From the NCBI GenBank assembly GCA_018398765.1, contig JAHBMJ010000139.1:28050-55590 (forward strand): a stretch of DNA of 27,541 nt. Direction: 5' to 3'. This DNA is from Chromera velia. Lineage: Eukaryota; Sar; Chromeraceae. Numbering within the stretch: position 1 is the stretch's first letter; each line of letters begins with the position of its first letter. The position numbers and the translations under genes were made by a program. This document shows, in pieces, positions 1 to 21,529 of this stretch. The notes under the pieces are model-generated. The model did no database searches. It had not been told where the DNA came from and saw only the letters and a program-made list of their open reading frames with translations.

Positions 1-147
1 AGAGACAGAGACAGAGACAGAGACAGACACAGACACAGAGACAGACACAGGGACAGGGACAGAGACAGAGACAGAGACAGAGACAGACAGAGAGACAGAG
101 AGACGGAGAGACTTAGAGACAGAGAGAGAGAAGAGAGAGAGAGGAGA

Positions 148-184
<37 letters not shown>

Positions 185-210
185 GGAGAGAGAGAAAAGA
201 GAGAGAGAGA

Positions 211-252
<42 letters not shown>

Positions 253-480
253 GAGAGAACGAAAGAGGGAGAGGGTAAGGAAGAAAAAGAGAGAGTAATT
301 AACTTCAAAGGAAGAAATAGAGCGAGAGCGAGAGAGGGAGAGAGAGTAAGGAAGAAAGAGAGAGGGTAAGGAAGAAATAGAGCGAGAGCGAGAGAGCGAG
401 AGAGAGCGAGAGAGAGCGAGAGAGAGCGAGAGCGACAGAGAGAGCGAGAGAGAGAGGGAGAGAAAAGGAGAGATAGACAC
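1..480. repeat. purine-rich (GA)n / GACAGA microsatellite tract
   Basis: The first 80 bases are GACAGA-type hexamers. They pass into long GA runs and then into a repeated GAGCGAGA / GTAAGGAAGAAA pattern at about 260-430. On the minus strand the tract is pyrimidine-rich, CT-type DNA, which is what introns of the other genes here contain on their sense strand. It is therefore most easily read as intron or 3' flank of the minus-strand gene that starts at 818. Long open frames through it are by-products of the repeat. Confidence 0.9.
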
Positions 481-5478: not shown

Positions 5479-6400
5479 GTTGACGAGTTGTGCAGAGAAG
5501 AGAGGAGGATGTGGGTTTTGTTTTCCTGTCTGTCCGGAGGGAGGGAGTGGAAGGAACAAACAGGGGAGGTGCAGTGTGACCCTACATACTTATGGGAGTT
5601 GACTACCATATTGCGAGGGATTCGAATAAACATCAACAAATGGGGAGAGAATATGAGATCAGAGAGATGAGGGTGTACGTGGGAGTGCTGGGGGATGAAG
5701 ACGCTACTCGGATGAGAATTTGATCTCGACTGACGGAATGACGTCTGCATGATCTTCTGTCGACCTGGCTGTGTATCTTTTGATACCCTTCAATCAGAAG
5801 AAGGTCTGACGGAAGATAGAAAGCGAAGAAAAGTGATGACACAGCAAGGATCTGCACCAGAGAGACACTCACAATCAACAGAGAAAAGAAAACAGAAGAG
5901 ATCAGTCGTCTTTGTTGTTCAGTCGAAATGAATTTCATTCTCGTCATTCAAGAGCTCGCACCCCCACCCTCCGACGTCCCTGGAAATCGTTTTTGTGTCC
6001 GCTCTTGAATTGCTCTCTCTCCATCGGTAGTGCCCCGCGCCCCAAGCCTACTTCAATCTCTTCTTCGGCATGGAAACAGGGAGATCAAATTCAAGCGTGA
6101 GTCAGAACAATTGTTGTTACAATGTTGTAGAAGAGAATTAACAAAAACACGTAAAAACATGTTGGAGTCAGTGTTCTAACCGTGTTTGGCTTGAGTGTAA
6201 TGCAGTTTTAAACATATTCCTTGAGGAGTATATCTAGGAGTATATACTAACCATTCTATCATATGTCTTATCATGTCTAATCATGTTGTACATATCATCA
6301 TCATCATCCTATGTTATCATAACGTCAGTAAACTTATGAATGGCCCTGCATGTGGAAAACAAGAAAAAGCGGTGTATGCGATATATGATGATTGAGAGTG
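5479..6400. other. intergenic region, no gene seen
   Basis: This is the 3' flank of the secreted-protein gene. It contains an ATC run near 6296-6308 and a short direct repeat (AGGAGTATAT at about 6224 and 6237). No convincing frame, domain or RNA gene was found. Confidence 0.5.
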
Positions 6401-6401
6401 T

Positions 6402-6890
6402 ATGCGACTACCTCCCTGACACTACCAGCCACTTGAAAGAAAAACGTTGAAGTTCATCCGCGAATACGACTTTTTCTTTTAAGAATTAATCTGCGTCGGC
6501 GGCCCAGACTTTCAAGACACTGTCCACGCCTGCAGTGCAGAGTTTCAAGATATAGTCCGCGTGTGCGGCGCAGACAAAAACCATCCGTGAGAGCGACATA
6601 AAATTCAAGTGGCTTATAGTGTCAGGGAGGTGACCCGGAGGTCTATGCGACATCGATTCACGCTCGCCGTAATTATAACTTACTACGGGTAAGGAACCGT
6701 TCACCATAGTAAGCAAAGAAGAGTTAATAGACATAGTTCGCATCTGCGGTACAGATTTTCAAGACATAGTTCACATTTGCGGTGCAGACTTTCAAAAGAT
6801 AGTCCATGTATGCGGCGTGGACTTTGAAGTCTATCCGTCAGAGTAAAAAAATTTTTAAATGGCTTATAGTGTCGGGGAGATAGCACGCCG
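6402..6890. repeat. nested repeat: 33-base tandem units inside a larger duplication with an inverted partner
   Basis: Units of about 33 bases, roughly GCGGYGCAGACTTTCAAGA then CATAGTCCRCRT, occur in two short arrays: about 6498-6590 and 6728-6835. Each array is followed by CATCCGT-like sequence (YATCCGT) and then by a block reading GGCTTATAGTGTCRGGGAG (6612 and 6859), so the whole unit of about 240 bases is duplicated. An inverted, imperfect copy of that last block lies at about 6411-6436, facing the copy at 6604-6631. The arrangement looks like a decayed foldback or tandem-repeat element. Minus-strand open frames across it only reflect the repeat. Confidence 0.7.
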
Positions 6891-14028: not shown

Positions 14029-17000
14029 TCACTGACAGTTCCCGTTCACTCCACACGCCGTGAGGACCATCTCAGCAGCAAAGTCATCCGACTCCGGTGC
14101 CAGCAATCCAGCACCCTCTTCGGAATCTGCCCCACCCTCCCCGTTTATTGCCCTGCCTGCTTCCCCTTCATGAGAGAGAAGCCCTCTTCCTTCTTCCTGT
14201 ACAACCTGTGCTCGACTGCGTGCATCTCCAGCAATGTCCTCAGAGTCTCTTGGCTCTTCTGCTGCATGTACACTTGAAGAATCGGCAGCAGAGGAAGAAG
14301 GGGGAGGTTGAAGAGACGCAGAGGAGGCCATGAGATCTTCAATCAAGTCAGCCTCCATCTGCTCGTGGCGTGGCTTTACAGACTGGCTGCCCTTTTCCTT
14401 TCCTTTTCCAGTCTCTTCGCCTCCTCTTCCCTTAGTTCTCGAGGAGGAAGATGCTCCTCCCTCCTTCTCCCTGCGAGCCGCCCTCTCCCCCTGTCTTCCC
14501 CTGTCGGTGTCTGAGATGGAGATGAGAGGTCGGAGGGCTTTGAGGAGAGAAGAGAACAAGTTGGGGTTTTCAAACTCTTGCTGACTCAGGAGCATCTTCA
14601 CGCGGTGTCTCTGCAGGAAGGCAGGCAGACAGAGAGAAGAACAGAAAGAAAAAAGAGATGTCAACCTCTAAACTCTCCGTCTTCTTACTCAGGGCAAATC
14701 AAGGACCCTAGCAAAGCCCCTCCATTCCATCCCTCCCTCCATCCATCCATCCATCCATCCAACAAGACAACCAGGCAGACAGGAAGACAGACGAACAAAC
14801 CAACAGACTATACGGCTCTTCCTTTTCCCTCCTCCTTTTCAGGCACAGAATAGACAAAAAATAAAGAATGAACAAAACAAGACAGAGAGACTCAGGCAGT
14901 CGGGCAAAAAGACAGAACGAAGAAGAAGAAGAAGAGGAAGAAGAAGGAGAACCCAGACCTCTTTCGGTGCAGCAAAGCAAGCGGGGCAGTTGTCGGGCAC
15001 CACAGGGAGTTTCACCTCCTCTGCGAACTGCGCGAGCTGCCTCTCTCTGCACAGAGCGAGAGGCCTGCACACACGGAGGTCGCCTTCCTCGACTGTGTAG
15101 TGGGCCTGCATGGAAGGAAAAGGTTGGACGAGCAAAAGCAAGAGCAAAGACGGACAGAAACAATTAATCCAAAAAATCCGTCTCTACGTTCTATTTGCAG
15201 TGGACTTAGCAGACAGCCTTGAAGTTAATGGGCAGAGGGCATGCGAGAGACAGCGCGTGCGTGAAGGGAGAAACTTCGAAAGAGATTGGCTCGGGGAATG
15301 AGTAAGCGGTTGTACGCTGGAAGGATGAAGATGCTGCACCAGAGTAGAAGATGGTTTGCAAGGATTGAATGAGCATATCAAAAAGAATGGCAGTCAAAAA
15401 GAAGAGACATGTGGACGAATCCAATAAGGGCCAAGCATTCTACGCGCATCTATCGGTAGACAAGAGTGACGAAAATTCAATCCGAACGGTCTTCGAGAAT
15501 TCCGACAAGAAAGAGTACATGACTGACTGACTCACTGACTGACTGACTGACCGACCGACCGACTGACTGACTGACAGACTGACTTTCATGGTGTTCAAGG
15601 TTCCATTGTGGAAGGCAGACATCACGAAGGACTCCGCCAAGTCGTCCAGATGCTGGCCGAGAGCGAGAACTGTGTACCCATACTGCATGTGAGCGTGTAT
15701 ATGTATTTACAAATCATCTCCTCAGAGTCGAGTGTGCGGACTCGATTCCAACGAGAACAATTCGAAAAAAAAAAGACAGAAATCGATGTAGTTGATTGAT
15801 TTGTGTGAGGTGTTGGTGCGGGGCACGAAGGGGGGGTTCTGGGGGCAATCGGGAGAAAGGAAGAGGGGGTTGAACGGAAAAAGAAGGGTTCACCAATTCC
15901 TTCAGAAGTCAAGTGTGTGCAAGGGAGAGAAAAAGAGTGAGTGCCTTTCTTCGTGTCGTGCCGGAACACATCCTTTTCTGTCAATCATTCAAAAGAGTGA
16001 GAATCATAATGCACTTCAACATGAAAAGACTGCCTGTTAGAACGACTTGACGGACCTTTCGCATACAGCTGTACAGAATGCCTCTCTTCATACGCGAGCA
16101 GAACGCACACACCGATTGCCTCTGCATGTGGTGTTTTGCGAGCTCAATCAAGGGAAAACTGAGGAAATGGTAAGTGATGCCCAGCTCCTTGCAGTACTCC
16201 ATCAACGAATGGGGTTTGTATTCGGGTGTCTGGGGATCGACGGTGGCGGCCGCGACCTCAAAGCGGACTGGGGCCCTGCGAGAGAGGTCTCGCAGCAAGT
16301 GGAGCATCGAAAGACTGTCCTTGCCCCCGGAAAGTCCGACAAGCACCCGATCTCCCTCCCTGATCATCTCAAAATCCCTCACAGCCTCTCCAACGAGACG
16401 ACGAAGGTGTTTGGGTGTGTCGATGAAAACGCCTTTCGGGACAGGACGGGAAGGGGACGTGACGGCAGAGGGCCAAGAGCTCAGGTGCCTGCTGACCCTC
16501 TTCGTACTTCCATTTGCTGTTTTTTCTATTACCTGTTCAGGGGCTCCGTTCACGTCTTGCGCAGGAGGGTGTTTCTTCTCTTCCTCTTCTGCCCCAACCA
16601 TTCCTTCTCTTTCTTCTTTCCTGCACACCCCCCTTCCGTTGGGCTCTCGTCCCTTTTCCTTCCTTTTCTGCCGTGCATACATCTCCGACAACTCAGCTGT
16701 GCCGTCCACTATGCAAACACCTGTCCCTCGCCCCTTGGATTCTCCCTCTCTTTCCTGGCTGGAGCTCGAGTGATTCTCTGCACCAGCTGCTGGAGACTGA
16801 GAGGGTGCGGAAGGGACCTCCAATTCCTCTGTTGTGGTGTCATTCTTTGTCTGCACTGTCTCCCCCTCCGTGTTCCTTCCTGTCGTTTCGTTTTCTCTCC
16901 CGTTCGTACTGCTGTCTCCTGTAGGGTGGAGACGACAGGCGTCCTCCTCAGGAGACGGTTTTTTTGTCTGAACCGAATCTGAAGCCCCGTCTTTCTTCTT

Positions 17001-18259
17001 CACCTCTGGTCTGATCTCACCTTCCAAGGACCCCAGAGCAGCAGGGGAGAAGAAGGGGGTCTCGGGTCTGCGTGCCAGTGCCTCAAGCACAGCAGTCTCC
17101 CCTCGCGTCTCCTTCAGATGCTCTGGATTTCTCTGTCCACTCACCGCCTCCTTCAATTCTCCTGTGGAGGGAGACAGAAAGGAGACGAACTTCGCCCCTC
17201 TCTTGCTCAATTTCGGATCACTCCCATCTCCACTCAACCACTCACAAGCCGACATTCCCGGAAGAAACGACTCTTTCTTTCCCCACCCAGCGCTGAGAAG
17301 GGAAAATGCTGCGTCTGCAGGCAAAGCGAACCACAACAAATCGGAAAACTCGGCGGGAAATGCGGACACCCCACACTTCTCCTCTGACAGTGCCAGAGTT
17401 CCGCTCGAGTACAGGCTGCGCAGGTTCCCTTCTGCTGCGGCTATGAGATCATCAGCCTTTCGGGGACACACAACGTCCTCCTCTTTGCTGCTCTGTACCA
17501 AAGACGGCCGACCGGGGCGACCAGAGAAAAGAGAGAAATCGGACAACCAGAGGCGGGTCTCCCCATCTTCATGCCCCTTCAACCGATGTTTCCACTCGCC
17601 TGTCTCGAATTCAAAACAGTACGCAGGGAGAAACTTCCACCCGTGCGTTGCCACGAACTCGACTGCAGAAGCGATCACTTCCACCTCATCCCATGTCTGA
17701 CTAAAATGGACCCCCACACGTGTAAACCCAGGTCTCAGCACTTCTGCTCCTGTCAACGCGAGCGCCTTCTCCGTTCTGGCGCTCGCTTCCACGGACAGAC
17801 CCATCAAATACTGCGCATACGGACCCGCACACGCACACCCAGCACGTCCCTGAAGTCCAAACAAATCGTTCAGCAGCGTTGCCACAAAGGAATGATGCAA
17901 ATACAGAGACTGCCCCCCCTCTTTCTCTTCATTACCGTAAGAAATCAAAAAGGAGACAATCCCCGCCCGTCTGTCCATAAATCCCTGCACCCCTGTGTCA
18001 CACCCCAAAGACGACACCCCCCCTCCAAGAGCTGCTGAGTACCCCCCCGAACCCCCAAGAATCATAATCCGGGGATGCTCCGCCCAGCGCTCGACAAGGA
18101 AGGACGCCATTCGTGCCTCCCTCTCTGCAATTCTCTCTGCCGAGAGCTCTGAGTGGAGACGCAGAGCCAGACCCACTCGCACACACGCAAGCAGATCAGG
18201 GCTGCCCGCCTCTTCACGTTCTTCTGGGTGCTGCACGGACACAGAGAGGGAGAGGGAGG

Positions 18260-18317
<58 letters not shown>

Positions 18318-19946
18318 AATGCACAACATTTGAACTGACGCACTGGAGAGAGATTCATGCATGAGGCACGCGAACCTTTTTTATGCCCTTCTTCCTCCTG
18401 CCTGCCGTCATGGACCTTCGTTTCTTTCTGACTTGCTTACCTCTTTCGCTTGGATCTGCCTCCGTGTTCCTTTTCTTTTTGTTCTCTTGGTTCTTCACCT
18501 ACTTCCTTCTTGTTTTCTTTGTTACTTCTCTTCCCGTCTGTCCCTCTTCTGTGTAATCCCTGCCGATCCTGCAGAGCATTCTGACAACATCTTCAAAGAC
18601 ACGACCGACCTTCACGTATGAATGGTTGTCCTCTGAGACGAAAAACACAACACCCCCTCCCGGACACCCAGGCACTGCGTTCTGCATCCATTTCTTCTTC
18701 ATGACCAAAACCCCTGTCGATCCAGGACCCCCCAAGAATTTGTGGGGGGAGAAGAACCCGACGTCTACAGACCCCGCAACGTCGTTGGGAGGAGAAACGA
18801 CCGGGCGAATATGAGCAGCACGAGCAGCAAAGTCGACGCACGCCATGCCACCGTATGAGTGCACGAGATCACAGACACGGGACACGTCAATGGAGATTCC
18901 CGTAACGTTGGACGTCGCGCAGATGAGTGCGACAGGGAGGACGTCGAGTTCGTCCTGCTCGTCCGATCTTCTCTTGGTCTCCTTTAACGCTTTTGTGAGG
19001 GACGATATACAGAGGCTGTGAGAAGATGAATCGATTTCCAGGGACACAAAGCTGAACGATACCTCCTCGCCTCCTTCGTCTTTCTTCCCTTCACTCTCTA
19101 AGACAATCTCTCTGAAGGGAAGAGACAAAGAGTGATGGGCCAAGGGGTCACAGAGAAACACCACCTCTCTCTTTCTCTTCTGTCCCCCACCCGCCTGATC
19201 GCCCTCGCGAACTTCCTTTTGACCTCTCCCGCGCTCTTCCTCCAAATGTGACGCAGAGGTGCAATGGGCTCGAAACTGCGCCTCTGTCTTCATGCGAACG
19301 TTACAGAGCTTGCACAGATAGGAACCCCACCGGTCGACCTCAAGAAAGGCAGGCGGGGAGTTTGGACAGGCGGCGGAAGAGCCGCTCTGTCCTGGGCGCC
19401 GCCACCCGCTCTTCTTCATGATCTGGATGAACGCCGACACCGCTCCTGTGCACCCGTGGCCGCAAAACATAAGAGCGTCGTCGTAAGTCGCCCCGAGGAA
19501 GTTCTTTGCGATTTGGCGTGCCTCGTTCCTGAAGAATGTTGACTGACGCGCAGTCGCGTTCTGGAGGGTGTGTGTATTGCCTGCACACACAGAAAGAGAC
19601 GAGGGATGAGGATATCTTATCGATCGATCCAAGACCGGACTCAAATGCCTGGATTGCACGACGAAGGGATTGACTGACCATAGTGTGGGAGGACGTTCTT
19701 GGAGATAAAGGTCTCGACTGAGGAGAGGAACTTTCCCGACGCGGTGTGGTCAGCGTAGGTGACGGGCTTTGTGCCGAAAGGAGTTCTGATTGCTGGAGAC
19801 TCAAGACAGTCCTTCGCAATCTTCTCCTCACAGAGAGAATCAAAAGATGAAGCGCTGTCGACTTGCGTGGAAGGAACAGTGTGAGGGTCGGTTGAGGAGG
19901 GTGCAGCGCGAGACGCACTCTCTCCTTCAAAGTTGTATCGATACAT
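14029..19946 (-). CDS. fusion: class V aminotransferase (cysteine desulfurase-like) + TtcA-like PP-loop tRNA thiolase
   Basis: Inferred minus-strand exons are 19946-19679, 19580-18610, 18230-16056, 15682-15584, 15105-14959 and 14610-14029. Phases agree (1, 0, 0, 0, 0), totalling 4242 bases and about 1413 residues. Residues 60-600 form a PLP-dependent class V domain: TYADHTASGKFLSS, HYGNTHT (across junction 1), ACVDFAARAAHI, then SPHKFLGGPGSTG with probable PLP lysine K370, PGGGVVFFV, REEAGSPDLL and GCACAGPY with candidate sulfur-accepting Cys545. A U1-type zinc finger is inserted at C179, C182, H195 and H201. A low-complexity linker spans about 690-1000. The PP-loop domain follows: SGGKDS at 1047-1052, CAFCSRMKRGILY (C1121, C1124), ALGQHLDD, and NCPAC (C1211, C1214), as expected for the iron-sulfur site of TtcA, which makes 2-thiocytidine at position 32 of tRNA. 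The C-terminal 140 residues are an acidic extension. Inference: the first domain supplies sulfur to the second. No targeting peptide is obvious. Confidence 0.85.
15517..15588. repeat. (GACT)n repeat starting at a splice donor
   Basis: Tetranucleotide GACT/GACC units run from about 15517 to 15588. Read on the minus strand they begin exactly at the exon 4 donor (GTCAGT at 15583-15578) and repeat GTCAGTCAGT downstream, so the intron starts with a series of donor-like hexamers. Confidence 0.85.
18241..18315. repeat. (GA)n microsatellite inside an intron of the fusion gene
   Basis: The tract is 30 or more GA units. On the coding (minus) strand it is (CT)n and lies just upstream of the exon 3 acceptor (GTGCAG at 18236-18231), acting as or extending its polypyrimidine tract. 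The open frame that runs through it from 18362 is not the true exon start. Confidence 0.92.
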
Positions 19947-20545: not shown

Positions 20546-21529
20546 ATGAACACCCCACTGACAGACATCAACGAACCACCCTTGGACTGCATCACCAGGG
20601 TGCAGTTCTCCCCGACGCAGGGTGAGTCCCTCCTTGTAGCGTCGTCATGGGACGGGTCTCTGCGTATGTACGACTGTAACAAGAATGCCATGCCCATCGC
20701 TTACGGTACCAACAAACCGATTCTGGACTGCTGTTTTATGGCCGACTCCAGAAGGGTGGTCTTTGGGGGGTTGTCTACGGAGGTTCGAATATTTGGCACA
20801 GCGGACAGCAGCAGCATTCTCTTGGGGAAGCACACGAAGGCAGTGAGGACGGTTTGTTACCACAAAGACCATCGCATTTTCACGGGTGGGTGGGACATGT
20901 TGGTGAAGGGGTGGGACCCCAGATCTCCCCAACCGACAAGCACAACCTCAGTCGGCCATAAGGTCTTCTGTATGGACTGCAATGACAGCAAAGTGCTTAT
21001 CGGGACCTCCAACAAAGAAATTGTTATTTTTGATGTGCGGAACATGGCCCAACCTTGGCACGTTGTAGAACCCCTGAAATATCAGTTGAGGTCAGTGAAG
21101 TGCTTCCCCGATCAGACCGGGTTTGCAGCCTCGTCCGTGGAGGGCCGAGTCGCGTGGGAGTATTTCGCCAACCCCTCCCCGAAACCGAAGTATGCCTTCA
21201 AGTGTCACCGTGAACCGATTGAAGGAGTGGAGCATGTCTATCCCGTCAATGCTTTGGCATTCCATTCGAAATACGGTACATTTGCCACCGGAGGGGGAGA
21301 CGGGACCGTCTCGATTTGGGATGGGATGGCAAAGAAGAGGTTGAGCAGAGTTAGCAAACAGAGCGTGGGGGTGTCCGCCCTCTCCTTTTCGGCCGACGGA
21401 ACCGTCCTTGCTCTCGGGCTGTCCTATACATTCGAAGAGGATGAAAAAGAGCAGATGCCTCCAAATGCCATCCGTCTGCGCCACCTCCAAGACAATGAAG
21501 TCAGACCCAAGAACCTTTCCTCCGGGTGA
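20546..21529 (+). CDS. BUB3: mitotic checkpoint protein BUB3 (WD40 propeller)
   Basis: This is an intronless frame of 327 residues, the usual BUB3 length. It encodes a WD40 beta-propeller that binds GLEBS motifs of BUB1/MAD3 and phosphorylated MELT repeats at kinetochores in other eukaryotes. Blade motifs are visible: SWDGSLRMYDC (34-44), GGLSTEVRIFG (74-84), GGWDMLVKGWDPR (114-126), GTSNKEIVIFDVRN (153-166) and GGGDGTVSIWDG (249-260). The BUB3 signature is in blades 5-6: SVEGRVAWEYF, then KYAFKCHRE with YPVNALAFH, and KKRL after the WD. The close relative RAE1 has a similar fold, but the SVEGRVA/EYF and KYAFKCHR motifs favour BUB3. The preceding in-frame context and MNTPLTDIN give a natural start. 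All neighbouring intact plus-strand genes have introns, so the lack of them is notable. Confidence 0.93.
   Translation: MNTPLTDINEPPLDCITRVQFSPTQGESLLVASSWDGSLRMYDCNKNAMPIAYGTNKPILDCCFMADSRRVVFGGLSTEVRIFGTADSSSILLGKHTKAVRTVCYHKDHRIFTGGWDMLVKGWDPRSPQPTSTTSVGHKVFCMDCNDSKVLIGTSNKEIVIFDVRNMAQPWHVVEPLKYQLRSVKCFPDQTGFAASSVEGRVAWEYFANPSPKPKYAFKCHREPIEGVEHVYPVNALAFHSKYGTFATGGGDGTVSIWDGMAKKRLSRVSKQSVGVSALSFSADGTVLALGLSYTFEEDEKEQMPPNAIRLRHLQDNEVRPKNLSSG

What the first reader, a model, noticed from the sequence alone, without database searches (positions are those of the whole stretch)
14029..19946. Cysteine desulfurase-like enzyme fused to a TtcA-type tRNA thiolase
Six exons with matching phases join a complete class V aminotransferase (K370 in SPHKFLGG, GCACAGPY) to a complete PP-loop domain (SGGKDS, CxxC, HLDD, NCPAC). 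In known systems TtcA obtains sulfur from a separate cysteine desulfurase such as IscS. Here donor and acceptor appear covalently linked, which could channel sulfur and free the enzyme from the general desulfurase. The linker of roughly 300 or more low-complexity residues would let the two domains meet.
Basis: partly seen in the sequence, partly recalled or inferred. Interest (0 to 1): 0.88.

Follow-up and report, generated by a model that had tools for sequence, protein, structure and literature searches.

The report
Fused sulfur-donor and tRNA-thiolating enzyme
A gene of a single-celled eukaryote joins an enzyme of the cysteine-desulfurase fold to one that would put sulfur on tRNA; the same domain order is already in print for one Toxoplasma protein, so this is a second, better-dissected case whose direct sulfur hand-over is still untested.

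Summary
Confirmed. Six GT-AG exons on the minus strand (19946-14029) encode 1413 aa: a class V PLP enzyme (about 45-722), a disordered linker (about 732-1018) and a TtcA-type PP-loop domain (about 1019-1256). One 725-codon exon without a stop holds the end of the first domain, the linker and the start of the second. A diverged paralogue on another contig of the same genome keeps the order, the motifs it covers and the joining exon. The PLP domain belongs to a SufS-fold bacterial family for which I found no tested function; desulfurase activity is inferred. The architecture is not new: PMC9420914 (2022) prints class V aminotransferase plus PP-loop for T. gondii TGGT1_294380 ('TgTtcA', cytosol and nucleus); the parts I saw propose no sulfur relay. 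Independence from the general desulfurase is unlikely, since TtcA needs a [4Fe-4S] cluster. Verdict: a real fusion kept by selection; new member of a known kind with a testable relay.

The parts
19679..19946 (-). exon 1, aa 1-89 (codon 90 split): low-complexity start and beginning of the PLP (class V) domain; no signal peptide by eye
   Evidence: nearest in-frame stop lies seven codons upstream of the ATG
18610..19580 (-). exon 2, aa 90-413: large part of the class V PLP domain with H238/H239, D339, K370 (K370 at 18741-18739)
19246..19317 (-). C2H2 zinc finger CxxC-x12-H-x5-H (C179, C182, H195, H201; aa 178-201) inserted in the PLP domain
   Evidence: zf-C2H2_jaz E 2.6e-4, 21.5 bits (cut-off 22.6) and zf-met 20.0 (21.2), both just under the cut-off; coordinates; ligands kept in the paralogue
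16056..18230 (-). exon 3, aa 414-1138, one open frame: PLP C-terminal part (R542, C545, C547, R584; end motif LLWFALP 711-717), disordered linker, TtcA N-terminal half (SGGKDS at 16331-16314, CAFC at 16109-16098)
16416..17276 (-). linker, about aa 732-1018, predicted disordered apart from one short helix (aa about 924-939); in the same open frame
   Evidence: pLDDT under 50 over most of exon residues 319-605; no stop
15584..15682 (-). exon 4, aa 1139-1171: TtcA GQHLDD motif
   Evidence: the intron before it is at the same codon boundary in the paralogue
14959..15105 (-). exon 5, aa 1172-1220: TtcA second CxxC (C1211, C1214 in NCPAC, 14991-14977)
   Evidence: the intron before it is at the same codon boundary in the paralogue
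14029..14610 (-). exon 6, aa 1221-1413: end of the TtcA domain and a low-complexity C-terminal tail, stop TGA at 14031-14029

Best explanation
A nuclear gene of a eukaryote (taxon not established here) makes one bifunctional, probably cytosolic or nuclear, protein. Shown from sequence: a complete SufS-fold class V PLP domain and a complete TtcA-type PP-loop tRNA thiolase domain in one reading frame, separated by about 290 predicted-disordered residues, with a dsRNA-type zinc finger inside the PLP domain, maintained in a diverged paralogue as far as its contig reaches. Inferred: the PLP domain takes sulfur from cysteine onto C547 as a persulfide; the flexible linker lets that loop visit the TtcA domain; sulfur is passed to the open site of its three-cysteine cluster; the PP-loop adenylates a tRNA base (probably C32) and the sulfur replaces the oxygen; the zinc finger helps to hold the tRNA.
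For: One exon holds the end of the PLP domain, the linker and the start of TtcA without a stop. Paralogue on C2657 with the same order; its open exon (L151 5618-6670) also runs from the PLP C-terminus through a linker to the TtcA start, with a GT/AG junction to VGNAIKEFDM, and two later introns at the same codon boundaries. Over covered positions (570 of 672 and 166 of 238) 275 of 570 PLP residues and 120 of 166 TtcA residues are identical, with pN/pS 0.36/0.78 and 0.22/0.75. Catalytic residues H238, H239, D339, K370, R542, C545, C547, R584 are conserved in the bacterial family and their motifs in the paralogue. In the family profile against SufS chains the second Cys of GCSCAGPY falls on the Cys of RAGHHCA (120.7 bits). 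Family model nearest to cysteine desulfurases. TtcA domain 35-37% identical to two bacterial TtcA with both CxxC pairs. The tagged T. gondii protein of this architecture has a band of expected size, in cytosol and nucleus. TtcA-type enzymes are thought to bind sulfur on the free iron of a three-cysteine cluster. An engineered MnmA-desulfurase fusion works in cells.
Against: No activity data for either domain. The PLP family has no tested member that I found: 86 bits against the SufS cut-off of 475, 100-127 bits for three bacterial members. No ttcA was found in the held flanks of 81 bacterial and viral loci, while Lrp/AsnC-like regulators (9 of 81) and an ABC ATPase family (14 of 81) recur, which fits general amino-acid chemistry; no control census was made. 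An unfused TtcA exists in the same genome. Smaller bands were seen for the T. gondii protein, so cleavage is possible. TtcA-type enzymes can use free sulfide in vitro. In the published fusion experiment MnmA alone could also complement, in one of four attempts.
Confidence: 0.55

Rival explanations
1. The fusion is real, but the PLP domain is not the sulfur donor: it is another lyase or amino-acid enzyme, or a dimer scaffold or cysteine sensor, and TtcA gets sulfur from the cytosolic machinery or free sulfide.
For: Family far below SufS cut-offs; bacterial neighbours point to amino-acid metabolism rather than thiolation; TtcA-type enzymes accept inorganic sulfide in vitro.
Confidence: 0.27
2. 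The thiolase half is active but acts on another base (for example U33, U34 or U54) or on another substrate rather than C32.
For: TtcA, TtuA and NcsA are close relatives; the score (219) is under the TtcA cut-off of 272; the review I saw in passages tables s2C32 for bacteria, with archaea to be determined, and no eukaryote.
Against: TtcA is by far the best model: TilS N-domain 65 bits, NcsA and TtuA 45 bits; by my reading the domain lacks the terminal zinc fingers that TtuA and NcsA have; the T. gondii authors also placed theirs with TtcA/TtuA.
Confidence: 0.13
3. Two proteins: separate genes or transcripts, or a precursor that is always cut.
For: No transcript data; smaller bands for the tagged T. 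gondii protein; the PLP domain ends on its family's natural C-terminal motif before the linker.
Against: No stop in frame from 18380 to 15984; same joining exon in the paralogue; expected-size band in T. gondii.
Confidence: 0.05

Closest known systems
Toxoplasma gondii TGGT1_294380, 'TgTtcA' (PMC9420914; sections 19 and 20 read, other passages by search)
   Same: Aminotransferase class V matches (62-149, 571-719) followed by one PP-loop domain (1353-1528); here the PLP homology also starts near residue 50-64. The gap between its two class V matches covers the place where the zinc finger sits here. Band of expected size, cytosol and nucleus.
   Different: PP-loop begins about 310 residues later; a zinc finger, the cysteines and a donor role are not mentioned in what I saw; I could not fetch its sequence.
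TtcA, tRNA 2-thiocytidine(32) synthetase (E. coli, P. aeruginosa)
   Same: PP-loop SGGKDS, both CxxC pairs, HxDD; 35-37% identity over the domain.
   Different: These two are stand-alone proteins; here TtcA is the C-terminal part of a fusion with a low-complexity tail.
SufS/CsdA/Nfs2 group II cysteine desulfurases
   Different: About 20-27% identity, well under curated cut-offs, GCxCAGPY loop, extra C-terminal part ending in LRWFxLP; no tested activity found.
Bacterial 'aminotransferase class V-fold PLP-dependent enzyme' family (RGGCSCAGPYGH type)
   Same: 31-39% identity to seven plasmid members over the domain; C-terminal end motif shared.
   Different: Stand-alone: 482-590 aa in seven plasmid records, 547-608 aa in 44 of 56 open frames; no zinc finger in the seven aligned and no TtcA.
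Engineered B. subtilis MnmA-YrvO fusion in P. falciparum (PMC10219651, passages only)
   Same: A desulfurase covalently joined to a tRNA thiolase supports growth.
   Different: Artificial; s2U34 enzyme; MnmA alone could also complement in one of four attempts.

Membership tests
TtcA (tRNA 2-thiocytidine synthetase) | PP-loop SGGKDS | tested here: met
   1047-1052
TtcA (tRNA 2-thiocytidine synthetase) | two CxxC motifs that supply the three cluster cysteines | tested here: met
   C1121/C1124 and C1211/C1214 align with C122/C125 and C210/C213 of the fetched E. coli TtcA. The review names C122, C125 and C222; the fetched protein has no Cys at 222, so which of the second pair is the third ligand I could not settle. 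The paralogue shows the first pair; its contig ends before the second
TtcA (tRNA 2-thiocytidine synthetase) | curated equivalog score | tested here: not met
   219.2 bits against 272, a cut-off set on bacterial proteins; still the best model by far. Hence 'TtcA-type', not 'TtcA'
TtcA (tRNA 2-thiocytidine synthetase) | makes s2C32 | not testable with these tools
   needs tRNA mass spectrometry
Cysteine desulfurase, group II (SufS/CsdA) | fold-type I class V fold | tested here: met
Cysteine desulfurase, group II (SufS/CsdA) | PLP lysine, His, Asp and catalytic loop cysteine | tested here: met
   K370, H238/H239, D339, C547; profile alignment to SufS places them
Cysteine desulfurase, group II (SufS/CsdA) | curated SufS score | tested here: not met
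   85.8 bits against 475.1
Cysteine desulfurase, group II (SufS/CsdA) | turns L-cysteine into alanine and persulfide | not testable with these tools
   needs an enzyme assay
TgTtcA architecture (class V PLP domain then PP-loop) | domain order in one polypeptide | tested here: met
   against the published order
TgTtcA architecture (class V PLP domain then PP-loop) | orthology by sequence | not tested
   T. gondii sequence not available in these tools
JAZ/zf-met C2H2 zinc finger | CxxC-x12-H-x5-H | tested here: met
   C179, C182, H195, H201; ligands kept in the paralogue
JAZ/zf-met C2H2 zinc finger | Pfam gathering score | tested here: not met
   21.5 against 22.6 and 20.0 against 21.2

The most novel reading that the evidence does not exclude
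A self-contained sulfur-relay enzyme: a distinct class of cysteine desulfurase, related to a bacterial family of unknown function and fitted with its own tRNA-binding zinc finger, feeds sulfur within one polypeptide to the cluster of a cytosolic eukaryotic TtcA. To my knowledge it would be the first dedicated donor for a TtcA-type enzyme and the first cytosolic 2-thio route of this kind in eukaryotes, shared by this organism and T. gondii, while an unfused TtcA serves an organelle.
Probability: 0.4. Interest if true: 0.82.

Novelty: new member of a known kind. Interest (0 to 1): 0.6.

Why it matters
How sulfur reaches [4Fe-4S] thiolases such as TtcA is described as unclear in two reviews that I saw in passages. 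A natural protein in which a desulfurase-fold domain and the thiolase are one chain, kept through a gene duplication in this genome and with the same domain order in T. gondii, makes that question directly testable with one purified protein and point mutants. It also offers a handle on a large bacterial PLP family for which I found no known function, and on whether eukaryotic cytosol makes 2-thiocytidine.

Tried and rejected
Separate genes: rejected for lack of any stop in the joining exon and because the paralogue repeats the joint. Operon origin in bacteria: tblastn of the TtcA domain against 89 loci (81 plus 8 plasmid loci; the 81 are 3.6 to 17 kb long) found nothing better than E 0.18. Fused bacterial relatives: the long open frames looked, on reading the ten longest, mostly like open non-coding leaders; L056 seemed to carry a real extra N-terminal region (my reading). 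Rows dropped: 25 of 81 loci from the alignment, because my gene caller missed the gene; of 65 loci readable, 46 were picked as diverse and 36 of these went into the family model; I kept 15 of the tblastn pieces and left out those that looked like chance. Some positions fall in two pieces and some piece ends may run past true homology; synonymous change is saturated, so only pN and pS are given. Neighbour census: besides the three groups I name, other groups in up to 6 of 81 loci (for example luciferase-like and UvrD-like by my reading, and several likely spurious antisense frames in GC-rich loci) were not pursued, and no control was made. Viral contigs: one distant PLP relative; TtcA by single protein: none; TtcA by alignment: 39 loci, bacterial-type on reading. 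No tRNA gene and no Rfam match at gathering level in the window. The single-sequence alignment that I first used for C547 (third stretch, 2.1 bits) is too weak to count; one search replaces it. The whole-genome protein query for further PLP-domain copies did not complete, so a third copy is not excluded; family queries score only the best candidates. Supplements of the T. gondii paper were out of reach and its sequence was not fetched. Literature: ten searches; two searches returned no paper; I opened seven papers in passages or sections (PMC10219651, PMC5372739, PMC5372745, PMC10067955, PMC8300815, PMC9420914, PMC5749711), of which PMC9420914 has this architecture; the other listed papers were not opened. 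Families absent from the structural list are not excluded.
Full report
What is there. On the minus strand six exons (19946-19679, 19580-18610, 18230-16056, 15682-15584, 15105-14959, 14610-14029) give 1413 codons in frame; all five introns start GT and end AG. Pfam finds Aminotran_5 (E 3.4e-26, two stretches, best 307-472) and ATP_bind_3 (E 3.6e-17, 1042-1210) in the same protein. NCBIfam names the second part TtcA (219 bits, cut-off 272, model positions 21-268 of 295; next TilS N-domain 65 bits, NcsA and TtuA 45 bits) and gives the first part SufS as best of a weak set (86 bits, cut-off 475).

Why it is one gene. Exon 3 alone, with no splicing assumed, carries the C-terminal part of the PLP domain down to its family's own end motif (LLWFALP here, LRWFxLP in most bacterial rows), then the linker, then the TtcA start with SGGKDS and CAFC. 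It is 725 codons without a stop; over 1000 shuffles the longest open frame was 428. The structure model of this exon (mean pLDDT 57.7) is confident for much of both flanking parts and under pLDDT 50 for most of exon residues 319-605, which is protein 732-1018. That model covers only the parts of each domain that lie in exon 3. There are no transcript data.

A paralogue repeats it. The window lies in a 177.8 Mb assembly of 4040 contigs. Searching it with the TtcA model found, besides the window gene, pieces on C29 and C2657. The C2657 stretch (L151) holds PLP-domain exons followed, on the same strand, by TtcA exons up to the contig end. Its open frame 5618-6670 contains the PLP C-terminus, a shorter linker that I could not align with that of the window gene, and PKSLRRT, then a GT donor; the next exon opens after CAG with VGNAIKEFDM, matching PKHLRRLVGEAVRDFEM of the window protein, where the window gene has no intron. 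Two later introns (before YGYTV and before AHYTV) are at the same codon boundary in both copies, GT to AG, and the window's exon 2/3 joint falls inside one continuous exon of the paralogue, which supports that splice. Identity over covered positions: PLP 275 of 570 (of 672 in the domain), TtcA 120 of 166 (of 238); proportions of changed non-synonymous and synonymous sites 0.36/0.78 and 0.22/0.75. Synonymous sites look saturated, so both domains appear to have been kept by selection since an old duplication, while the linker has not. The motifs that the contig reaches are kept: zinc-finger ligands, HH, Asp, SPHK, GCACAGPY, the PGFxR arginine, SGGKDS, CAFC, GQHLDD; the second CxxC lies beyond the contig end.

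The zinc finger. Between residues 178 and 201, inside the PLP domain, lies CKLC-x12-H-x5-H. It scores just under the Pfam cut-offs for zf-C2H2_jaz and zf-met, the seven bacterial relatives aligned lack it, and the paralogue keeps all four ligands. Pfam describes the jaz finger as double-stranded RNA-binding, so a role in holding tRNA is a reasonable inference, untested.

The TtcA domain. It is 35-37% identical to E. coli and P. aeruginosa TtcA, with SGGKDS, both CxxC pairs and the DD of HxDD. Bacterial TtcA holds a [4Fe-4S] cluster by three cysteines, needs IscS and IscU, and the role of the cluster in sulfur delivery is described as unclear. One review numbers the ligands C122, C125 and C222; the E. 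coli protein fetched here has C122, C125, C210 and C213 and none at 222, so I rest on the two CxxC motifs. A later paper describes a free iron site that takes up sulfide or donor sulfur.

The rest of the sulfur system in this genome. A second TtcA on C29 is closer to the E. coli protein (49-59% over three pieces), has a hydrophobic leader-like N-terminus by eye and no PLP-domain match in C29:38500-54000; an organellar location is inference. Class V enzymes elsewhere include NifS/IscS-like genes and SufS-like and IscS-like exons. So the fusion is not the only desulfurase-like gene nor the only TtcA, and independence from the general desulfurase is unlikely because the cluster must still be built.

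What was known. PMC9420914 (sections 19 and 20 read, the rest only as search passages) reports that T. gondii TGGT1_294380 has class V aminotransferase matches at 62-149 and 571-719 and a PP-loop at 1353-1528, calls it TgTtcA, and finds the tagged protein at the expected size, with smaller bands, in cytosol and nucleus. I saw no proposal there that the first domain feeds the second. The same section reports a SufE domain within the MnmA-like TGGT1_309110, another sulfur-relay part joined to a thiolase. PMC5749711 (one passage) lists the gene as a putative cytosolic thiouridylase. PMC10219651 (passages) shows that an engineered MnmA-YrvO fusion replaces MnmA in P. falciparum, though MnmA alone did so in one of four attempts.

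Verdict. The architecture is already in print for one apicomplexan, so this is a new member of a known kind; the paralogue, the zinc finger, the bacterial family of the PLP domain and the active-site conservation are what this work adds. The relay is the best explanation at about 0.55, and one mutant protein (C547) would go far to decide it.

Noticed in passing
window 20549-21526, + strand: Intronless WD40 protein (Pfam WD40 over its cut-off, THOC3 propeller best by E-value but under its cut-off), which I recognise from memory as Bub3/Rae1-like; it is divergent from the fusion gene with about 600 bases between the starts.
   Followed up: partly
L151 (G000:C2657:7000-16119): Paralogue of the fusion gene, intron-rich, cut by the contig end; at 461-971, in an apparent intron, ten copies of a 51-base unit at 98% match.
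   Followed up: yes
L150 7083-8990 (G000:C29): Unfused E. coli-like TtcA in at least three exons with a hydrophobic leader-like N-terminus, perhaps organellar.
   Followed up: partly
L132 (G000:C3048) and L131 (G000:C4039): Two further NifS/IscS-like genes matched in one piece each; the first reads one stop inside the match. Apparently intron-poor, so possibly bacterial contigs or late gene transfers.
   Followed up: no
L147 1111-2145 (G000:C789): Open frame of 344 aa with an ATP_bind_3 match, by its motifs TilS-like (my reading), possibly organellar.
   Followed up: no
L002 4947-8436: Bacterial family member in a row with an FAD-binding oxidoreductase and an L-2-amino-thiazoline-4-carboxylate hydrolase gene, a lead to a sulfur amino-acid substrate for this PLP family.
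   Followed up: no
L056 7005-9698: Relative with what looks like a fused cyclic-nucleotide-binding-type N-terminal region (my reading, no search made).
   Followed up: no
window 1-463, 18243-18314, 15520-15584: Long simple repeats (GA/CT runs and TGAC units), the last two in introns of the fusion gene.
   Followed up: no
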